A DNA stretch of 64,000 nt from Liolophura sinensis (Eukaryota > Mollusca > Polyplacophora > Chitonida > Chitonidae), in the NCBI RefSeq assembly GCF_032854445.1, contig NC_088304.1, positions 4,092,001 to 4,156,000 on the forward strand, written 5' to 3'. Numbering within the stretch: the stretch's first letter is position 1; every line of letters starts with the position of its first letter. Below are positions 43,871 through 54,289 of this stretch, piece by piece. A program made the translations under genes and the position numbers. The notes beneath the pieces are model-generated. The model worked only from the letters and a program-made list of their open reading frames with translations, made no database searches and was not told the DNA's origin.

Positions 43871-44126
43871 AAACGAATGAAGTTGAAAAAAAAATTGAAG
43901 TCATTAAACATTAAGAGAGGAAGAAACACGTGATGTCAGACTTATTATTGCGCTGTTAACATGGTGCACTGGTATAAAAATATAACTTATTTATGTTTGA
44001 AAACATCTAATGGAGTCTGCTTTATACGGTGTGTCCATCTGTCACTTTGGCAGGTACACACAAGGTTTGGTTTCAGCCCCGTCCATGGCGATGGAAATTG
44101 TGGATCCCCCTATTCTGTTTACATGT

Positions 44127-44375
44127 ATTTATTTATTTATTTATTTGACTGGTGTTTTACGCTGTAATCAAGAATATTTCACTTATACAATGGCGGCCAG
44201 AATTATGGTGGTTGGAATTAAGGCAGAGAGAAACCCACAACCATCCGCAGGTTGCTGCGGACCTTTCCACATATGAAGGAAGCCAGCATGTGCTGGACTT
44301 AAGCTCTTAGCGACTGCATAGGCGGAAGGCTCCTGAGTCATTGCACCGCACTGGCATGCTAGCCTCAGAGACTCC
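44127..44375 (-). mobile_element. SINE family A
   Basis: TATTTATTTATTTATTTGAC tail, TTTACGCTGTAATCAAGAAT, to GCACCGCACTGGCATGCTAG; nearly full length. Confidence 0.82.
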
Positions 44376-45607
44376 CTCCCCAATTCTAAGTGTTTGTCTC
44401 GGGCCATTGTGACAGTGAACAAATGATGGTGATTGTGTGGCCACTTTTACAGTCTAGTGCTCTTTGAAGACTACTTGTCTAGCACAAATATGGTGTGAAC
44501 ATCAGAATATTGCTCAAATATGAGGGGAAATTCTGGTAAATTAAATCAGCTTTTCTTTTTGATCATAGATAATGCTCTAAGGTTAATATTGTCTGCTTCA
44601 TTAAGCCATGGCCTGCCGACATCTTTCACTCTACTGTTCAATGATCCATCAGTGATCAAAATGGATAAAAAAAATGGTCTGGTGACGTCAAGATATTGAT
44701 CGCATTAATGTGATTAAGTCACAGGATTATGTCCCTGATCAGCAAGTTCACGCGGTAAAAGGCTAAATGTGAGGCACCATCGATTACACAGAGCCTGGCT
44801 TAATTCCACTAAGTAGCTGGTTAAAGGTTGGAAAGGTGTTACTGACTTGCTTCAGTCTGTGTGGCTCCCCAGATCAATTGACCATTAAACCAATATAGTA
44901 GTCAGTAAAGTCATAGCTTTGTCTTTATTAGCCAGACAGGCTTAACGAGAATCATTGCACCTGTTAACGAGCTGTTATCAGGATATACTGTACATACTGC
45001 AGCCAGGTAAGACATCCTCCAGTGATGTTTGATTGAAAGGTTTTGTGGTAGTGGATATCAGAGAAAAAATATGGCATGAATTTGAATTCCTTTAGACGTA
45101 CAAAAGTGTAATGTGCATGTTCATGTAATGTGTAGCTTGAACAGACCTGTAGACATGCATGTATTTTCATTCAGCTGTATTAACATACATGCAAACCAGA
45201 TGAGGATAAATGCATATTTATGCAACACCAATTTTTCTTTGTGTTTTACAAATAAGACTAAAAAAGGCCAAAAAGTATGCTAGAAATAAAACTGAAAATC
45301 CGCCTTTTTAGGCCAAACAAAAAATATGTTGTGTTTCCAGTAACCGGGGTTAAAAAAATTTAGGGAAGGTAGGTAGGGATTTTTTTTTTTTGTGGAATTT
45401 TTTTTTACATCTGAACCGAAGGCATTCAGACAAATAGAAATTGTTAAATCTCTGTTTTTACTGCTGGCTGTAGCTGCTCCTGTAATGCAGATCTATTACA
45501 ATATCCTAAATACTTAATACATCCCCATATGTGCCTTTCTGGGAGAATTGGGGTGTGATCGTCTAACTTGTTGTTTTATACCGTAGTCAAGAGTATTTCA
45601 CTTTAAT

Positions 45608-45935
45608 ACAGTGAGTGAGTGCTTGGGGTTTAACGTCGTACTCAACAATTTTTCAGTCATATGACGACAAAGGAATCCGTAGGGTGTATGTGATGCGCCT
45701 CCTTGTTGTAGGTCGGCTTTCCAACGCTCTTTTGAGTACTGCTACTTCACTGAGATGACTTACTGAAGGCAAGTAAGCCGTCCCACCTAAGCCATTATAC
45801 TGATACGGGTCAAACAGTCATTGCACTACCCCCTTCATGCTGAATGTTAAGCGAGGAAGTTACAACTCCCTCTTTTAAGGTCTTAGGTGTGACTCAACCC
45901 AGGATTTATCCTGGACTACTGCTATCCTGCCCAGT
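45608..45935 (-). mobile_element. SINE family B, adjoining a family A 3' end
   Basis: Reads as the reverse complement from GTGAGTGAGTGCTTGG to the head. It directly follows a family A 3' end fragment (about 45568-45605, TTTTATACCGTAGTCAAGAG), so one element probably inserted into or beside the other. Confidence 0.8.
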
Positions 45936-46083
45936 CACTTTATTACAAACCATTGATCATTGCCAAGCCTCTAACAACTCCCCCATTTGGAAAATACAGT
46001 GGTGAAGGGCAGGTCTCCAAAGAATAAAGCCTCTTTTATACAGTTCTAATAGCCTCATTGTCCACCCGCCACCAAGACCCCTT

Positions 46084-46237
46084 GAATTTATTTATTTATT
46101 TATTTGATTGGTGTTTTATGCCGTACTCAAGAATATTTCACTTATTCGATGGCTGCCAGCATGATGGTGGGAGGAAACCGGGCAGAGTGATGGGGAAACC
46201 CACGACCATCCGCAGGTTGCTGATAGACCCTTGAAAT
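46084..46237 (-). mobile_element. SINE family A, 3' half
   Basis: TTATTTATTTATTTGATTGG to CGACCATCCGCAGGTTGCTG, beside the 36-bp triplicate at 46302. Confidence 0.85.
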
Positions 46238-46301
46238 TAACTACTCATCTACCTGCAGCGGAATGAGGAAATTCCCGGCATTCCTTTGTAAATCTAACCC
46301 A

Positions 46302-46412
46302 GATCCCCAGGTTAGCAATCTTTGGTGATACCCACTAGATCCCCAGGTTAGCAATCTTTGGTGATACCCACTAGATCCCCAGGTTAGCAATCTTTGGTGA
46401 TACCCACTAGAT
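46302..46412. repeat. 36-bp tandem repeat, three copies
   Basis: The unit is AGATCCCCAGGTTAGCAATC plus TTTGGTGATACCCACT, just downstream (on the minus strand) of the decayed DDE-family gene. Confidence 0.92.
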
Positions 46413-46615
46413 CACTGCCTCCAAACTGAGAATTCAGAGGAAACAAAATCCTTTACATCATTTATACATTTTATTTGGCATACATGTTAATGCCCAGTAT
46501 TTACCAAGACATTAACTTCGGTAAAATCATGTCACACGTGCTTGCCATAGGGCCTTAAACAAGAAACCTCATGTTCCAGAGCAGAACATGCAGCACACAC
46601 TGGTAAAACTGTCTT

Positions 46616-49250
46616 TTACTGTTTCTTAAGTTCAGTGTTTACTGTTCCTTTATCTGTCCCACAGAAACAACACAAATCCTTCTGGCCAATGTCAGAACTG
46701 TAGTATGGAGTTTCCACAAGGGACTCACAGGTGATACCCAGCCTCATGAACACTTTACTGTACAGCGGATTATTTGGTGGGATGACAGGAGCTCCACATG
46801 AATACTCATACTCTGTCATGGTAGTTATGGGTTGAGCCTGCTGGCGCTCAGTAAGTTTACTTTTGGAATACACCACTTTTGGTTTCTTGCACTCCACACA
46901 TTCAAACACTGCTTGTGCATTTTGGGCTGTTAACACTGCGGGCTATACAGAAATGCCACTTTCAGTGGATATAATGGCAGATTGATGGGCGCTTGCTTTG
47001 ATTTTTCCAAGTTTCAGTTTAGCAGCACCAGTTTCAGCTTAGCAGCACCAGTTGCAGCTGCTGGACCATGTTTTTTCTGCTGAGCTTTTGCAGCTTCCTC
47101 CAGGAGGCTAGGACAGTCATCTTCAGATGTTTCTGTTCCATTGACAGTTTCAAAAGGCTTGTAGTGTTCACCTGACTGGTCAAGCACAGGGTCTGGCAAC
47201 CACATCAGTTTTTCTCTCGAGTTAAGTGTTGGAGAACAGCATGAATCATTCATACACTCCCTTTTTTGAAAGGAATATCTGCGACACTGACAATGCTCCT
47301 CCAACCATTTTTGGTAAGATGCCACTTCTTTTGTGCTTTTTTTGGGTCACTTTTGAAGCATTTAGCCCTGGGAACAAACCCTCAACATGCTGTTTCGCCT
47401 CTTGAATTGCAGCATCTTCTACAGACTGCTGAACATTGACAGGTTTCCCTTTGATGGACAGCTTTTCAAATCGACCTTCTATGGTTTCTTTACAGGACCT
47501 GATCCTGTTTGTCCAGGCTTCTTTCAGACCCGGAAACTTCTGTTCCATGTCCCGTATATCGTTCATATTGCCACATCTGCCAAATGTCGCTTCCATTTCT
47601 TGAGAGCAGGTCCAAATTTAAGATTGACATAATGCATTCTGCCATATTTGTCCAGCTTTGTCCTGGTGCATGTCTAGGTCCAGCTTTGTGAACAAGTAAA
47701 TAAGTGAGCGCTTTACACTTTCTAAATTATTTCTTTGATCTGTTCCACCATCTGAAAACTTGGATAAAATCTTTGGTGCTGACTCCACTGTGTCGTTTAG
47801 CGTGACAGAGGCCTCACCGTGACAGAAGGATTTACGGACCATCAGGTATGTCACTTTTAAATAGACAGATGGTGTTAAACAACCTTTGTGGTTCACATCA
47901 TGGTCCAGTCCAAAAACAGAGTTTGTTTTTGCCTTGGACCCCTGTCAACAGCGGTAAACTTGGCTGCCCAAGTGGAATCTTTGCCTTGTCATCACAGCTG
48001 AGAAAAACACACAGATCCCCCAAGGCAACAGACAATAATGGTCGTCCGTATGATGGGCACGCAACTGCCTTCTCTGTATTTTATATTGAACATCAAAACG
48101 CCCTGTAAAGTTTAAAGCTGAGTGTACATAGGTGTTCGTTGGAGTGAACTAAAGACGAACCAGGGTAGAGGATGGTATTTCTGTTCCCTCTGGACATAAG
48201 TCCTTGGCTTGCTGTATCAAATCTTTCAATGAAATCCACTGGGAAAGATGGCCGACGTTGTGACTTCTTTCGTCAGATGCTGTGACCTGCTGGATAACGA
48301 TTCCTAACTTTTCCAAAAATGTATCGAACATTATTAACGGGTGTCCAGCATTGAGTTTTCTTAGATCTGGTAGAAAACCTTTCTCCCCCGAAAATATTAG
48401 TCTCAGTCTTTGTTGAGTGTCTGGGTGTTCTGCGACTGAGACATCCAAAGAGAGCTCCTTGTAAAGAAATTGAACAATGCTAGGCGAAAGAAAAACAATA
48501 TTTTGGAACTTCTGTTGGAAATTGCCTTTCATTTGACGTGTGAAAAACTGGAAGCAGTGATTTGATCTGTGACATGACTCTGGATGTATCAGTCAAAATT
48601 TCTTCTGTAGTTCGCTTTGGCTGGACCTGTACAATAACTGCCACTGTTGTGTGAGAGCCATCGGGAGCATACTTGAACACATCCTCCAGGACAGACAGTT
48701 GAAGGTGTTCCAAGTATCTGAGTCTTTGCGTACTTGACTGAAGTGGGGACAGCAAGTGTTGGCTTTCATCAAATGCTACTGGCTTATTCAGTCCAGCTTC
48801 TTTAACAGACTTATCAAGCAGGTCATATCTCCTTTCAGGAGCATAAATTGCTGCAGATCGTTGTTCTACGATGATATTTTCAGAAACTTCCCTGACTGGG
48901 TGATCCAGTTTTTGCCTTTTAGTCTGCTGTTCTAGTTGCATATTTTTAATATTGAGCATACTACTGAAAATACTTTGCTAGATTTTTTATCCCTGCACGT
49001 ATAACTGACCAGTCTGGAGATGATACACTAGGTCTGAGGGAAATGCTGTAAAGTGCCTCAGCGTGACTTTTCAAGTTATTGCTTGACAAGGGTGGATTTT
49101 TTTCTTCTTTCTTTTTGTGTCATCAAATCCCTGAAATTTTTCAAATATTTGTGGAACTGGACAAAACTTACTCCTCTTCAATGAGACACATCTGATGGTG
49201 TCATGGTGATCAGTGACATACCACAAGGCATTGGTGAGCACCAGCAAAAC
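46616..49250 (-). pseudogene. Decayed C-terminal part of an uncharacterised DDE-signature (transposase-like) protein family
   Basis: Reading the minus strand from about 49250, successive frames give one collinear protein interrupted by stops and frameshifts: LTNALWYVTDHHDTI near 49215, PQIFEKFQGFDDTKRKK near 49150, a long stretch 48959-48485, a frame change near 48530, then a frame to a TAG at 48148 that directly continues (FTPTNTYVHSALNFTG). Next come CDDKAKIPLGQP near 47990, SDGGTDQRNNLESV near 47750, and in a shifted frame APGQSWTNMAEC near 47650. Cys-rich C-terminal pieces follow (HCQCRRYSFQKREC near 47270; CVECKKP, YYSSDIGQKDLCCFCG to 46616). The D, D and E positions look like a DDE/RNase-H-type catalytic triad. 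From memory, similar multi-copy predicted proteins occur in cnidarians and molluscs, but I know no established name. At least four frame changes and stops make this copy non-functional. The call of transposase is inference. Confidence 0.6.
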
Positions 49251-50758
49251 AAAAAAATCAAGAATTGTAATATAAAACTTAACATGTGCCCAACATACAG
49301 TAGAAATTAATCATATCAATTACTTCATCATTCTTTCGGTGATTAAAATTGACACTTACCCTGCAGTGGTATAGCTTGAAATAAAAACAATACAGCAAAC
49401 AAGTACACCAAGAATGAGGACATCAATCTATGTAAACGGCAAGCTTATATCAGACATCTAAACAGCAGGGTGAAATATCTGTCTGACAGGCTACATTGAA
49501 CGCAAAGATTTCTGGCTTGATACCAGAAATTGATGATGACTTAGGTATGGAAAACAAGTTTCACATTCAGGAGCTAATGTAATACAGGAAGATTTTTAGA
49601 AAACCATATAATTGTCTATAAAATCTTAAAATATATGAAAAATTTAAATTCGTGCAAAACTTTAGGGAATTGTAGTATTAAAAAACGGAAGATAAATGTC
49701 ATTTGAGGTGCTAAAACTATGAACAAACCATCTGTTTTTGCCTCACTTAAAAGTATGAAAATGTTCTGAAAGTTAAATGTGAAGGAGAAAAAATACATGT
49801 AAAAATAATGAATCTTTCATAGCTGTTATGCCATATAAAAGAAGCTAGACAGAATAAAAAATAAATATAATCATGCTTGTAGGGAAATATTGCTAAATGT
49901 TGTGTTAGACAGCTGAATGTGGATGGTGCTAAATTAAACAATGATTAATGTTAATGTGAATTGTGTTACAGCAGGAAGTGCATTGGTTTCTGTCTCTGGG
50001 GTTCAATGACATTTTTTTTTTCTAGACACACAGTACTAAGCTGATACATTCAGGAAGAATTCAGGCAAGGCAAAAAAAATACAATACCATGAACTGAATC
50101 TGGAAGTGAAATAAAAACACAAAAATAAATTTCGAAGTGTAAACCATCAGATATACAATATTCAGCACCGACATACCTGCTGAACAGGTAAAATAAGGTA
50201 CACGTTAGTTGTATACTGCCAGTATTAGTATTAAGGCAAGGGTGTTATTACATTCCAAAATCTGTTAAAAGAACATGTACTAAGTACTAAGTTCATATAA
50301 AAAAATGAACCCCATAGAAACAAGCTAACAAAACAAACTGCACACATCCGGGTCCTAACAATTAAGGCTTAGCAACGTATATAAAGTGATGAAAGTAAAC
50401 CCCAATTGTCACTATCCTGTGGGCTGTGTTGTGGTGGCAACCTGGGTTTAATTACCAGTGGGGCCACAGCAGGGAATTAAGAAATTGTCAGTGGCTTGCC
50501 AAAGATCGGTACTTTACCCCGTTTTTTTTTTTTGGAGGTTTTCTCCAGTCACTCTTGAGAGTGGTGTAAAACAACAATTAGCCTGTCAGTCACTGTCTCC
50601 TAAAGTTTATACCTGAATCTCTGCCAGAGCCCTATATTACCCAATTGTACTTGTATTCTGTAAGGAATAAACAGAAATAAACAAAAACACACACTAACAA
50701 ACAATTTTTGTGTACAAAACCAAGCAGAACTTGGAACAAACCTGGGTTATGTAATCAC

Positions 50759-51606
50759 GTTTCTGAATCAGCTACTGTTTTCAAGAAACTACATCCTTCT
50801 TGTCTTTCCAATTCAATTACATCATTAAACGGTCTGTCCTTGTCTGATAATTTTCTACTGGTCAACCCAGAGCTTAACAGACAAAAAAGAAAAAAATCAA
50901 TTAAAAATACCACAAGAATGTAAGTCTAGTAAATGAATCTTCGAACAACAGGATCCAAATGTTCAAACAAATGAAAACAATAAATAAATAAAAGGAGAAA
51001 TCAAGTATTTCATGAACTGGTGAAAGACAAGGAAATTGCAACAGATAGGAGCTTGGATACGATGAGAACAGGAATGAAGTCTGAAATGTTCAGGAATAAA
51101 ATAGTGTGGTACCTGGAAACTTTTGTACAAGGGAGCCTTTTTTCTTTGTCCATCAGAACATCAAACGCAGTTCTAGGCGTGACCTCTGATGCGTCATTAT
51201 TTTCAGGTGTGTTGTTGCAAGTACACTTAAAGTGTATAAACCATATGTTGAAGACACTGACAGCTGACAACACCGGATTTGTAAGATAAACTAAGTAGAT
51301 ACACAGACCGTCTTCTGTGGATGAACAAGACAACGATGATAAACTGAGTTCTTCCAGATCGTGAAGCTTTTGTATAAGCTCTTTAAAAGTCTGAGATCAA
51401 CTGAAATTAATAAATAAGCGTTTGGCTGTCTTGTTTTTCCCGCATCGGTCGACTGTTGCGCATAACAGCGCCATTTTGTCTAAGCCGAAACACGAGGACC
51501 AACCGGACTCTGGATCCGACGGGATATGACAGAGTTCACAAAAGCGATATTCGCATATTTCCTCAACACAGATCAGACGGGAAAGGCAATGGGACAAAAC
51601 TTTCAA
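50759..51606 (-). pseudogene. N-terminal exon-like pieces of the same DDE-signature family, in-frame TGA
   Basis: Piece 1 starts after an AG at 51607 and reads through a Cys-rich segment (CELCHIPSDPESGW) and an ATG at 51474 (MALLCATVDRCGKNKTAKRL). It hits TGA at 51399-51397 and then continues in the same frame as clearly protein-like sequence (SQTFKELIQKLHDLEEL) to about 51320. Piece 2, ending at an AG|GTACCA donor (51113), contains TPRTAFDVLMDKEKR. Piece 3 is 50872-50759 (SGLTSRKLSDKDRPFNDVIE), entered in the phase that piece 2 requires. Same strand and order as the decayed C-terminal half at 46616-49250, and the F-D-V-L-M motif followed by W-Y-[IV] downstream is, from memory, the usual order in this family. 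So the two blocks were probably one gene spanning about 5 kb. The TGA suggests it is broken; the left boundary of piece 2 is unresolved. Confidence 0.5.
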
Positions 51607-52235
51607 CTAAAATAATTTTATAAAAAGAATTAGAATTGGGAGGAAAAAATAGGGTCCGTCGGGTGGCCGGACACTCAACATATTTTTTTTTCAGGCCTTA
51701 TTAGGCTTCCAGTCTAAAAACTGGGCAAAGCCTATTGTTATTATACATTATTATTATTATTATTAGGGTGGGGTCAGAGGGTGAGCAGTTCAGATGTGCC
51801 ATGCGACGTTTGAACTTGTTAGTGCCATTGCCTGTACATGTCATAGCTCTTCGTATTTCAGCTCACCCATGGCTGGCCTCGCTGCCTATCTAGAAAACAG
51901 CACCTGAATTGTCTTTGACAAAAAGCGCATGTACATATGGTTTATATACATGCACAAACACATAGATACCTTCATGTACCATTTAGTTTAAGCCGATGTT
52001 ACCAGAAAATTTAGTCTCAACTGCATATTTGAAATTAAACCATGATATGCTTGTGTTCATAGTTGGTAGATTTATATGTAAGTTTTAATGTGGGTTCTGC
52101 TGGAGATAGATGTGTACAGGCAGGTCTAACATGGCTGGAATACTTGGATCTGAATGGATGCACACTGTAGCTGTGTCAACCAGTGCGAATTACCATACAA
52201 ATTTAATTTACACAGTACTATTAAACACATGTATA

Positions 52236-52457
52236 TACTGTAATTTTTCAACTCTTTGGAATGTTTGCAAGGTGTTTATTCAGGCATATTCTTAACGCAT
52301 TATTCTGTGTTGACTGATAAAATTATACTTCTTGTGAAGCCCAGAAACTGGCCAATCCAACCAATGTAGTTTTGTCCTCAAAACCAAATGAAAAATGTGC
52401 ATTTATTGCAGTGAAAGTTGCTCTTTTATGTGCGAATAGGTTGAGGAATTAGAGTAT
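52236..52457 (-). mobile_element. MITE-like element, copy in inverted orientation
   Basis: About 220 bp, the reverse complement of the element at 53034-53246 with high identity. Ends are TIR-like: TTCCTCAACCT-TTCG at one end and TTTTTCAACTCTTTGGAATG at the other. Confidence 0.65.
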
Positions 52458-52626
52458 ATATAAATTCATCATCAACAAGCAGAAGAAATACACATTTTTT
52501 CTGTGTGGACCAAGTATAGAACATAAATATTATAATGATAAACTTTTCCTGCATGTGAAAAGATACCAGTTTTCCAGGACACCTGCCTTTCCTAAAGCTG
52601 TGTATGGAATTGGGTGTCTACTTGCT

Positions 52627-52826
52627 TCAACGTGGAACTTCGGGTATTGACAATGCAGTTAACTCTTGTTGTACATGTACTTTGGATATATTGGGCTGGA
52701 TTGAATGGCACAATTCTTTGACAGGAAACTTATCGGCTCTGACCTCTGTAATGAATCCATTCGCACGCCCAACTACACCCTCAATGGTGAATAGCTTCTT
52801 TGTTTGTTCATTGGCCATTCCTACAC
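52627..52826 (-). other. Protein-like ORF fragment, possible exon or gene remnant
   Basis: After an AG acceptor-like site (about 52827) the minus strand is open for about 65 codons, encoding NEQTKKLFTIEGVVG and FPVKELCHSIQPNIS-type sequence and ending at TGA. Composition and residue pattern look like real protein rather than random AT-rich sequence, but I do not recognise it and no partner exon is visible. It sits about 1 kb upstream of the decayed DDE-family pieces on the same strand and may be a remnant of another repeat-borne gene. Confidence 0.3.
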
Positions 52827-53033
52827 CGAAACACGATAGGTGCTAGTGAACTTCTGATATTAATCCATGTCTTATAGTGTAGGAATGTCAGTGTGTCACT
52901 TTGAGCAGATCAGCCGTCACGATTTCTTTAAAATGACAAAGACAGGATAACGGATATGGACGTGTGATCCTAATGTCTCAAAGAACTAGCTCAGGTCATT
53001 TAAATATACATTATGTACATATATATGTGAATG

Positions 53034-53246
53034 CTTTTCCTCAGCCTTTTCGCGTATGAAAGAGCAACTTCCAGTGCAACTTATGCACATTTTTAATTTG
53101 ATTTTGGAGACAAAACAACATTTCTTGGATTGGCCAGTTTCTGGGCTTCACAAAAAGTAGGACTTTATCAGTCAGCACAGAATAATGCTTTAAGAGTATG
53201 CCTGAATAAACACCTTGCAAACATATGAAAAGGTTGAAGAATTATA
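53034..53246 (+). mobile_element. MITE-like element
   Basis: Starts TTCCTCAGCCTTTTCGCGTA and ends ATATGAAAAGGTTGAAGAAT; the ends are imperfect inverted repeats of about 20 bp. The body carries TGGATTGGCCAGTTTCTGGG. No coding capacity. Confidence 0.65.
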
Positions 53247-54289
53247 GCCCAGTTGAAACTTGTTGACTGCTTCTCTTAACATGAATCCATCCTAATTTCC
53301 TACTTAATATACTTTATTAGCTTTTTAGAGGTTTAATTGTGTTGAGCATTTTGGTTGATGGCTGATGTACAAATGCTTGTTTTGTTGCATAAATTTGAGG
53401 TCTTTTGTGAGTAGCAATCTGGAACAAAGCCATTATTATTTATAGCCGTAAAAAATTGCTTCAGCAGAGTTTGCCCATTGCAGCCTGATGATTCAGTGTT
53501 TATATCACGTGTACGGCGAAGATGTGTCAGTGTATAGGTAAACAGAGGCTGTGTTCTTTACAAATACAGTGAAAGTTGATTTTCTAATGGGTAGAAATAA
53601 GTGGCGGTGAAAGTAATTTCTGAACATCATATTTCAACAGTACTGAGTGCAATAAAGCTCATCTGGTGGACTGGATGTCTGGGTTTTCATAATTAACCCT
53701 AAATGAATTTTGCAATTACACATACCTCTCATCCCTTCCAGCTACATGTACAACAGAAAAACGAAGCTAAAGAGGACGGGATGTTTTGACTGTTTCCGAG
53801 ACTTCAAAGCTCACAAATAGGGTTAGACCTACAGTGTGGGGCATTTGGACCATATGTTCAGTACTGGTATCGCAAGACTGATAAGGACAATTTAGTGTTA
53901 TTTCCTGGTTTGGGTGATGGAGTAGCTTTCTAAATAAAACCTCGCATGGTTGGCTGTGTCCCGGGATAAACTCCACTCTGCACAGTGCCACTAGGCCTAG
54001 CCTCAAGCAGGGGAATTAATAATAGTTCATGGCAACCATATTGCAGGACTAGGGGTCGATGAAATAGAGATGTTGCATGTCTGACTGCTGGAAACCATCA
54101 GGAAGTAGGAAAGTTTATCACATGTATGATTATGGTTATGATGGGAGGGGGAATGGGGGGAGGGGGGATGGGAGGAGGGGCATTTGCTTGTGACAGTGTA
54201 ATTGTGATGGGCTGAAGGATCAGCCAAGTCTAAGCACAGGTGGATGTGGATGGAGAGTTTAGTACATGCCTTCCAGAAACATGGTATGC

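What the first reader, a model, noticed from the sequence alone, without database searches (positions are those of the whole stretch)
46616..51606. Remnant of an unnamed gene family with a DDE-like catalytic signature
Seen: on the minus strand, collinear protein pieces in shifting frames with CDDKAKIPLGQP, SDGGTDQRN and GQSWTNMAEC spaced like a DDE/RNase-H triad, an upstream WYVTDHHDTI block, an AFDVLM block further upstream, and Cys-rich ends that look zinc-binding. Recollection: similar multi-copy predicted proteins are common in cnidarian and mollusc gene sets but, to my knowledge, are not assigned to a named transposon superfamily. Inference: it may be an undescribed cut-and-paste-like element or a host gene family born from one. 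The N-terminal half still shows usable splice phases while the C-terminal half is broken.
Basis: partly seen in the sequence, partly recalled or inferred. Interest (0 to 1): 0.75.

Follow-up and report, generated by a model that had tools for sequence, protein, structure and literature searches.

The report
Dead chiton transposon with bacterial-type transposase
This stretch of a chiton genome is a decayed jumping gene whose broken enzyme most resembles a family of bacterial jumping-gene enzymes (ISAzo13), and its ends and the small footprint it left when it landed can still be read.

Summary
I found five copies in this genome (probably Liolophura sinensis). Four keep both ends: three have exact TTA or TAA duplications; the fourth (TTT/TTA) has a paralogous empty site reading TTA. 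The four copies translated are broken, and coding copies differ about equally at the three codon positions, against a host gene under selection.

The protein matches no Pfam family. From first D to E it matches ISAzo13 transposases (z 4.9, 0 of 500 shuffles; held-out member 5.2, 0 of 2000) and not Tc1, pogo, PIF, rve or IS66 (z -0.2 to 0.9). D2-E spacing is 43 against 42. Local hhalign was not significant; AlphaFold was uninformative.

Zator is the known eukaryotic relative of ISAzo13, also with 3-bp duplications. Whether this is a deep Zator lineage or a separate one is untested.

The parts
45311..51697 (-). whole transposon copy, GGCC...GGCC, 6387 bp
   Evidence: ends shared with other copies, exact positions
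51668..51697 (-). 5' terminal inverted repeat (about 30 bp)
   Evidence: inverted repeat I2; letters; the 4 zero-mismatch hits of the inverted-repeat pattern in the genome are all ends of these copies
45311..45340 (-). 3' terminal inverted repeat (about 30 bp)
51698..51700 (-). 5' target-site duplication, TAA
45308..45310 (-). 3' target-site duplication, TAA
51111..51474 (-). first coding exon remnant (MALLCATVDRCGKNKTAKRLF ... AFDVLM ... KVSR), one internal stop; approximate limits; weak ubiquitin-like hint in the C6 copy
   Evidence: Rad60-SLD E 0.045 and 0.03, below the curated cut-off
50755..50868 (-). second coding exon remnant (SSGLTSRKLSDKDRPFNDVIELERQEG), approximate limits
46533..49247 (-). 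long last exon remnant (WYVTDHHDTI block to Cys-rich C-terminus), several frameshifts and stops; approximate limits
47991..47993 (-). first catalytic Asp (D1, in CDDKAK)
47870..47905 (-). DHDVNHKGCLTP block, aligned with the DHDF..TPYG region of ISAzo13-type transposases
47750..47752 (-). second catalytic Asp (D2, in SDGGTDQR)
47637..47639 (-). catalytic Glu (E, in QSWTNMAEC); 43 residues after D2 in the joined reading of the C6 copy
46533..46942 (-). C-terminal Cys-rich (CxxC) region, possible zinc binding
   Evidence: sequence; no Pfam match

Best explanation
It is a dead copy of a low-copy cut-and-paste DNA transposon. The live element had about 30-bp terminal inverted repeats starting GGCC around one gene with introns, coding a DDE transposase of the ISAzo13 type with a long N-terminal part and a Cys-rich C-terminal part. 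The transposase would bind the repeats, cut the element out with its D-D-E site and insert it at TTA/TAA, leaving a 3-bp duplication. Shown: ends, duplications, one empty site, DNA-level copying, decay of the copies read, and alignment of the catalytic segment with ISAzo13. Inferred: introns and exon limits (from reading frames), cleavage chemistry, roles of the N- and C-terminal parts, and excision as opposed to another DNA route.
For: Five copies, four with both ends. Duplications TAA/TAA (window), TTA/TTA (C7), TTA/TTA (C10 at 10.35 Mb), TTT/TTA (C1); the empty-site paralogue of the C1 copy on C26 reads TTA. The 4 zero-mismatch hits of the inverted-repeat pattern in 609 Mb are all ends of these copies. 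Shorter copies of 2.4 kb and 1.1 kb keep both ends. The D1-to-E segment matches ISAzo13: z 4.94 (0 of 500) for 7 sequences, 4.17 (1 of 500) for the 5 canonical ones, 6.22 (0 of 500) for the 2 divergent cyanobacterial ones, and 5.21 (0 of 2000) for a held-out one. Controls: Tc1 -0.20, PIF -0.21, pogo 0.93, rve 0.21, IS66 0.47. The test also recovers ISAzo13-Tc1 kinship (3.56) and finds none for ISAzo13-PIF (-0.83). ISAzo13 and Zator both make 3-bp duplications (PMC10045372, passage).
Against: hhalign gave probability 0.2%, and 135 of 300 shuffles scored as high. PF07592 (ISAzo13) matches neither the 10 pieces nor the joined core at E up to 10, and tblastn of the joined core against plasmids found nothing at E up to 10. 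ISAzo13 was picked by eye before the segment test, segment limits were set by me, and column shuffles ignore secondary-structure periodicity; the held-out sequence and five comparators only partly answer this, the Tc1 set was 2 near-identical sequences and the rve one lacks D1. Single copies against the held-out sequence: window z 5.21 (0 of 500), C6 2.93 (0 of 500), C1 3.20 (1 of 500). Upstream of D1 the signal is weak and not specific (ISAzo13 2.66, pogo 2.27, Tc1 1.02, PIF -1.15). Both AlphaFold models have mean pLDDT below 40. No intact relative was available.
Confidence: 0.85

Rival explanations
1. It is a PIF/Harbinger element: GG-starting ends and TWA duplications, with a very decayed Harbinger transposase.
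For: TWA is the PIF/Harbinger duplication, and repeats of that group and its relatives often begin with G or GG (PMC4482050, passages); DDE_Tnp_4 gave 152 matches in this genome.
Against: No DDE_Tnp_4 or Myb match to the pieces or core scanned; segment test z -0.21, 273 of 500 shuffles as good.
Confidence: 0.05
2. It is an AcademX element (3-4 bp duplications; Academ is common in bivalves).
For: AcademX makes 3-4 bp duplications (PMC10045372, passage); curated Academ elements in bivalves average 5565 bp and Academ is amplified there (PMC10294476, passages).
Against: No nuclease or other Pfam domain in the pieces scanned. The bivalve paper finds Academ (and Zator) restricted to bivalves among the molluscs it studied; whether it held chitons I did not see. 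Academ sequences could not be compared, and the AcademH paper is not held.
Confidence: 0.07
3. It is a host gene family born from a transposase, copied by segmental duplication.
Against: Copies end at inverted repeats with 3-bp duplications and differ in their flanks, one with an empty site; codon positions differ about equally, e.g. 0.130/0.087/0.116 over 793 codons; the four copies translated are broken.
Confidence: 0.03

Closest known systems
ISAzo13 family (prokaryotic insertion sequences; Pfam PF07592)
   Same: D-x-K...(I/L)G, DHD..(T)P, D-x-G, S-x-x-N-x-x-E in the same order; D2-E spacing 43 against 42; 3-bp duplications (paper)
   Different: Seen here in an animal; the reading is much longer, with apparent introns and a Cys-rich C-terminus; no PF07592 HMM match
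Zator (eukaryotic superfamily related to ISAzo13/TP36)
   Same: Eukaryotic, ISAzo13-related transposase, 3-bp duplications (papers)
   Different: No Zator sequence was available; I would expect Zator proteins to match ISAzo13 more directly than this one does (inference); architecture not compared
Tc1/mariner and pogo (IS630-Tc1-mariner group)
   Same: Similar catalytic layout ending in an N-x-x-E or comparable motif
   Different: 3-bp TWA duplications rather than TA as in most of that group (some pogo relatives have TAA; PMC7386202, passage); segment test shows no specific link (z -0.20, 0.93)
PIF/Harbinger
   Same: TWA duplications, G-starting ends
   Different: Transposase unrelated in the test used; no DDE_Tnp_4 or Myb match in the pieces scanned

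Membership tests
cut-and-paste (TIR) DNA transposon | terminal inverted repeats at both ends of dispersed copies | tested here: met
   4 of 5 copies keep both ends; genome pattern search
cut-and-paste (TIR) DNA transposon | fixed-length target-site duplication and an empty site | tested here: met
   3 of 4 exact TWA; the fourth has one mismatch and an empty site TTA; an empty site was found for 1 copy, and was sought only for that one
cut-and-paste (TIR) DNA transposon | RNase H-fold DDE transposase | tested here: inconclusive
   D, D, E align with ISAzo13; AlphaFold mean pLDDT 37.4
ISAzo13 family | match to PF07592 | tested here: not met
   no match at E up to 10
ISAzo13 family | conserved catalytic motifs in order and spacing | tested here: met
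   hhalign did not confirm
Zator | 3-bp target-site duplication | tested here: met
   family value from PMC10045372
Zator | transposase groups with Zator in a tree | not testable with these tools
   no Zator sequence at hand; a genome search with PF07592 gave 2 sub-cut-off places elsewhere
PIF/Harbinger | TWA duplication | tested here: met
PIF/Harbinger | DDE_Tnp_4 transposase (and Myb/SANT gene) | tested here: not met
Tc1/mariner | TA duplication and DDE_3-type transposase | tested here: not met
   3-bp TWA; no DDE_3 match; z -0.20
AcademX | Academ-type transposase with nuclease | tested here: inconclusive
   no Pfam domain in the broken pieces; no Academ sequences to compare

The most novel reading that the evidence does not exclude
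A distinct animal transposon superfamily that descends from ISAzo13-type elements separately from Zator: a long, intron-bearing transposase with an N-terminal (possibly ubiquitin-like) part and a Cys-rich C-terminus, TWA targets, GGCC ends, and unrecognised many-copy members in cnidarian and mollusc gene sets.
Probability: 0.4. Interest if true: 0.65.

Novelty: new variant of a known kind. Interest (0 to 1): 0.48.

Why it matters
If intact relatives are as common in cnidarian and mollusc gene sets as recalled, many 'uncharacterized proteins' there would be explained as one transposase family with a defined catalytic triad and target. It would also widen the short list of eukaryotic transposon groups paired with a prokaryotic family. 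By its ends alone (G start, TWA duplication) it could be filed as Harbinger, so short non-autonomous relatives may be misclassified.

Tried and rejected
Host gene family: rejected for these copies. PIF/Harbinger, Tc1 and pogo as the protein's family: no support (a smaller earlier run, agrees: ISAzo13 4.94, Tc1 -0.05, PIF 0.16). A catalytic-stretch protein query found no relative in viral contigs or the GTDB genomes (3 and 14 pattern stretches, none confirmed). Two degenerate DNA patterns found nothing in viral contigs. PDB (best E 0.42, unrelated) and NCBIfam gave nothing for the joined core. A last genome search with the joined core found again the C6, C1 and window places, and one C4 place at E 6.1, which is chance level. 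The two sub-cut-off PF07592 places (C12, C7) showed no transposase that I could read by eye. hhalign was not significant, and its Tc1 set there was contaminated, because some loci were read on the wrong strand; the set was rebuilt with both strands. Rows dropped: Tc1 kept 2 of 8 loci, pogo 5 of 6, PIF 8 of 8, and ISAzo13 7 of the 10 fetched (three lacked D1); one search used 6 ISAzo13 rows (one more dropped for a stop). One search crashed and was rerun. AlphaFold was uninformative twice; no fold search was run on such models. Merlin as a comparator: no match in this genome at E 0.001. Papers: PMC10045372 first part of five and passages; PMC12441733 whole text; PMC7386202, PMC5718144, PMC10294476, PMC8533490, PMC4455052, PMC10799480, PMC4482050, PMC11068029 passages; all others search listings only. 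Paper searches showed, in the rows listed (lists are capped; two were empty), no paper that by title and start of abstract describes this family; Repbase and Dfam were not searchable.
Full report
Where it is. The window lies on contig C10 of a 632-contig assembly of 609,464,459 bases; contig C1 has 96,433,062 bases. The chiton assembly in PMC11068029 has 632 scaffolds, a longest one of 96,433,062 and 609,495,693 bases (passages): scaffold number and longest length agree, the total differs by about 31 kb. The species was later corrected to Liolophura sinensis (PMC12441733, whole text). I take this as the likely host.

Observation. A pattern for the SDGG block with up to 2 mismatches is expected 0.01 times in the window and found once; a related pattern without mismatches occurs 3 times in the genome, only at copies of this element, against 1 for its reversed control. 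The finding's edges are not the element's edges: 46616 is a premature stop and 51606 an ORF limit.

Copies and ends. DNA search found matches at C6, C1, C7 and a second place on C10 besides the window, including stretches that I read as introns. With flanks the shared sequence stops at GGCC on both sides. Exact spans: window 45311-51697 (6387 bp), C1 copy 4249 bp, C7 copy 2438 bp, second C10 copy 1132 bp; no 3' end was found for the C6 copy. The two ends are inverted repeats of about 30 bp. Scanning the genome with an 18-base inverted-repeat pattern gave 35 hits with up to one mismatch against 19 for the control; the 4 hits without mismatch are all ends of these copies. A query with the 5' end found these five copies, one 80-bp fragment on C1 and one flank match on C26. 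Counts are lower bounds by the tool's own statement.

Target-site duplication. Flanking triplets are TAA/TAA (window), TTA/TTA (C7), TTA/TTA (second C10) and TTT/TTA (C1); the C6 copy has TTA at its one end. For the C1 copy a repeat on C26 gives the empty site: the 5' flank (84%) and 3' flank (77%) are contiguous there and read CATATTAATTACTGTAAATTACC. The target was TTA, and one of the two copies at the C1 insertion has since changed. So 4 of 4 copies with both ends agree with a 3-bp TWA duplication, three exactly. Empty sites were not sought for the other copies.

Decay. The four copies translated (window, C6, C1, C7) are broken by frameshifts, stops or deletions; the 1132-bp copy was not translated. 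Differences per codon position are 0.130/0.087/0.116 (window-C1, 793 codons), 0.136/0.132/0.171 (window-C6, 462) and 0.130/0.122/0.188 (C6-C1, 393). Some excess at third positions is expected, because pieces were aligned as proteins. The copies have mostly diverged without protein constraint.

What the protein is. Pieces of the window and other copies match no Pfam family above chance, nor does the joined catalytic core match Pfam, NCBIfam or the PDB. The catalytic stretch reads D1 - 101 residues - D2 - 43 residues - E in the joined C6 copy. I noticed by eye that its layout resembled ISAzo13 transposases (recollection), fetched ISAzo13-type sequences from plasmids (3 of the 3 scanned match PF07592) and tested it. 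Local hhalign put D2 and E in register but was not significant (probability 0.2%, 135 of 300 shuffles as high). A global comparison of D1-to-E segments, with shuffled columns as the null, gave ISAzo13 z 4.94 (0 of 500; 7 sequences), the five canonical members 4.17 (1 of 500), the two divergent cyanobacterial members 6.22 (0 of 500), Tc1 -0.20, PIF -0.21, pogo 0.93. A further ISAzo13-type protein whose letters I first saw (Nostoc plasmid; PF07592 E 2.7e-60) served as hold-out: z 5.21 (0 of 2000). Against it the single copies gave 5.21 (window, 0 of 500), 2.93 (C6, 0 of 500) and 3.20 (C1, 1 of 500); rve (a segment without D1) gave 0.21 and IS66 0.47. The method also recovered kinships stated in the literature (ISAzo13-Tc1 3.56, Tc1-pogo 2.35, ISAzo13-pogo 2.06) and none for ISAzo13-PIF (-0.83), Tc1-PIF (1.11) or pogo-PIF (0.54). 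The alignment shows D-x-K...(I/L)G, DHD....(T)P, D-x-G and S-x-x-N-x-x-E largely shared. Upstream of D1 the signal is weak and not specific (2.66 for ISAzo13, 2.27 for pogo).

Structure. AlphaFold on in-frame pieces gave mean pLDDT 37.4 and 39.0; these carry no weight. The RNase H fold is therefore inferred from the alignment with ISAzo13, not shown.

Mechanism. The most likely life of the intact element: the transposase binds the GGCC-ended repeats, cuts with its metal-binding D-D-E site, and joins the ends across a 3-bp stagger at TWA. Ends, stagger and target are shown; the chemistry is inferred from the family. The Cys-rich C-terminus probably binds zinc and perhaps DNA (inference). The shorter copies on C7 and C10 that keep both ends fit non-autonomous derivatives moved in trans, or decay after insertion.

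Known or new. ISAzo13 is paired with the eukaryotic superfamily Zator, and both make 3-bp duplications (PMC5718144 and PMC10045372, passages). This element shares those features but fails the PF07592 profile, and no Zator sequence was available, so I do not file it as Zator. By its ends it could pass for PIF/Harbinger (TWA; PMC4482050, passages), but the transposase does not fit. I call it a new variant of a known kind. Recollection, not tested: cnidarian gene sets hold many predicted proteins with the same motif order.

Noticed in passing
52238-53247: A 211-nt inverted repeat (85%) with 588 nt between the arms lies just outside the transposon, perhaps another foldback element.
   Followed up: no
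46301-46413: Three head-to-tail copies (spacing 36) of a 41-nt match, 100% identical, inside the transposon copy.
   Followed up: no
46083-46222: A SINE-like unit that also occurs at 44124-44257 and aligns with sequence inside the C1 copy and near others, so it may have entered before the copies spread.
   Followed up: partly
L009:6472-6837 (minus): N-terminal stretch with a weak ubiquitin-like (Rad60-SLD) hint, E 0.03, below cut-off; the model is too poor to use.
   Followed up: partly
L041:1056-1796: The empty-site sequence on C26 matches in three places there: the C1 copy landed in a repeat.
   Followed up: no
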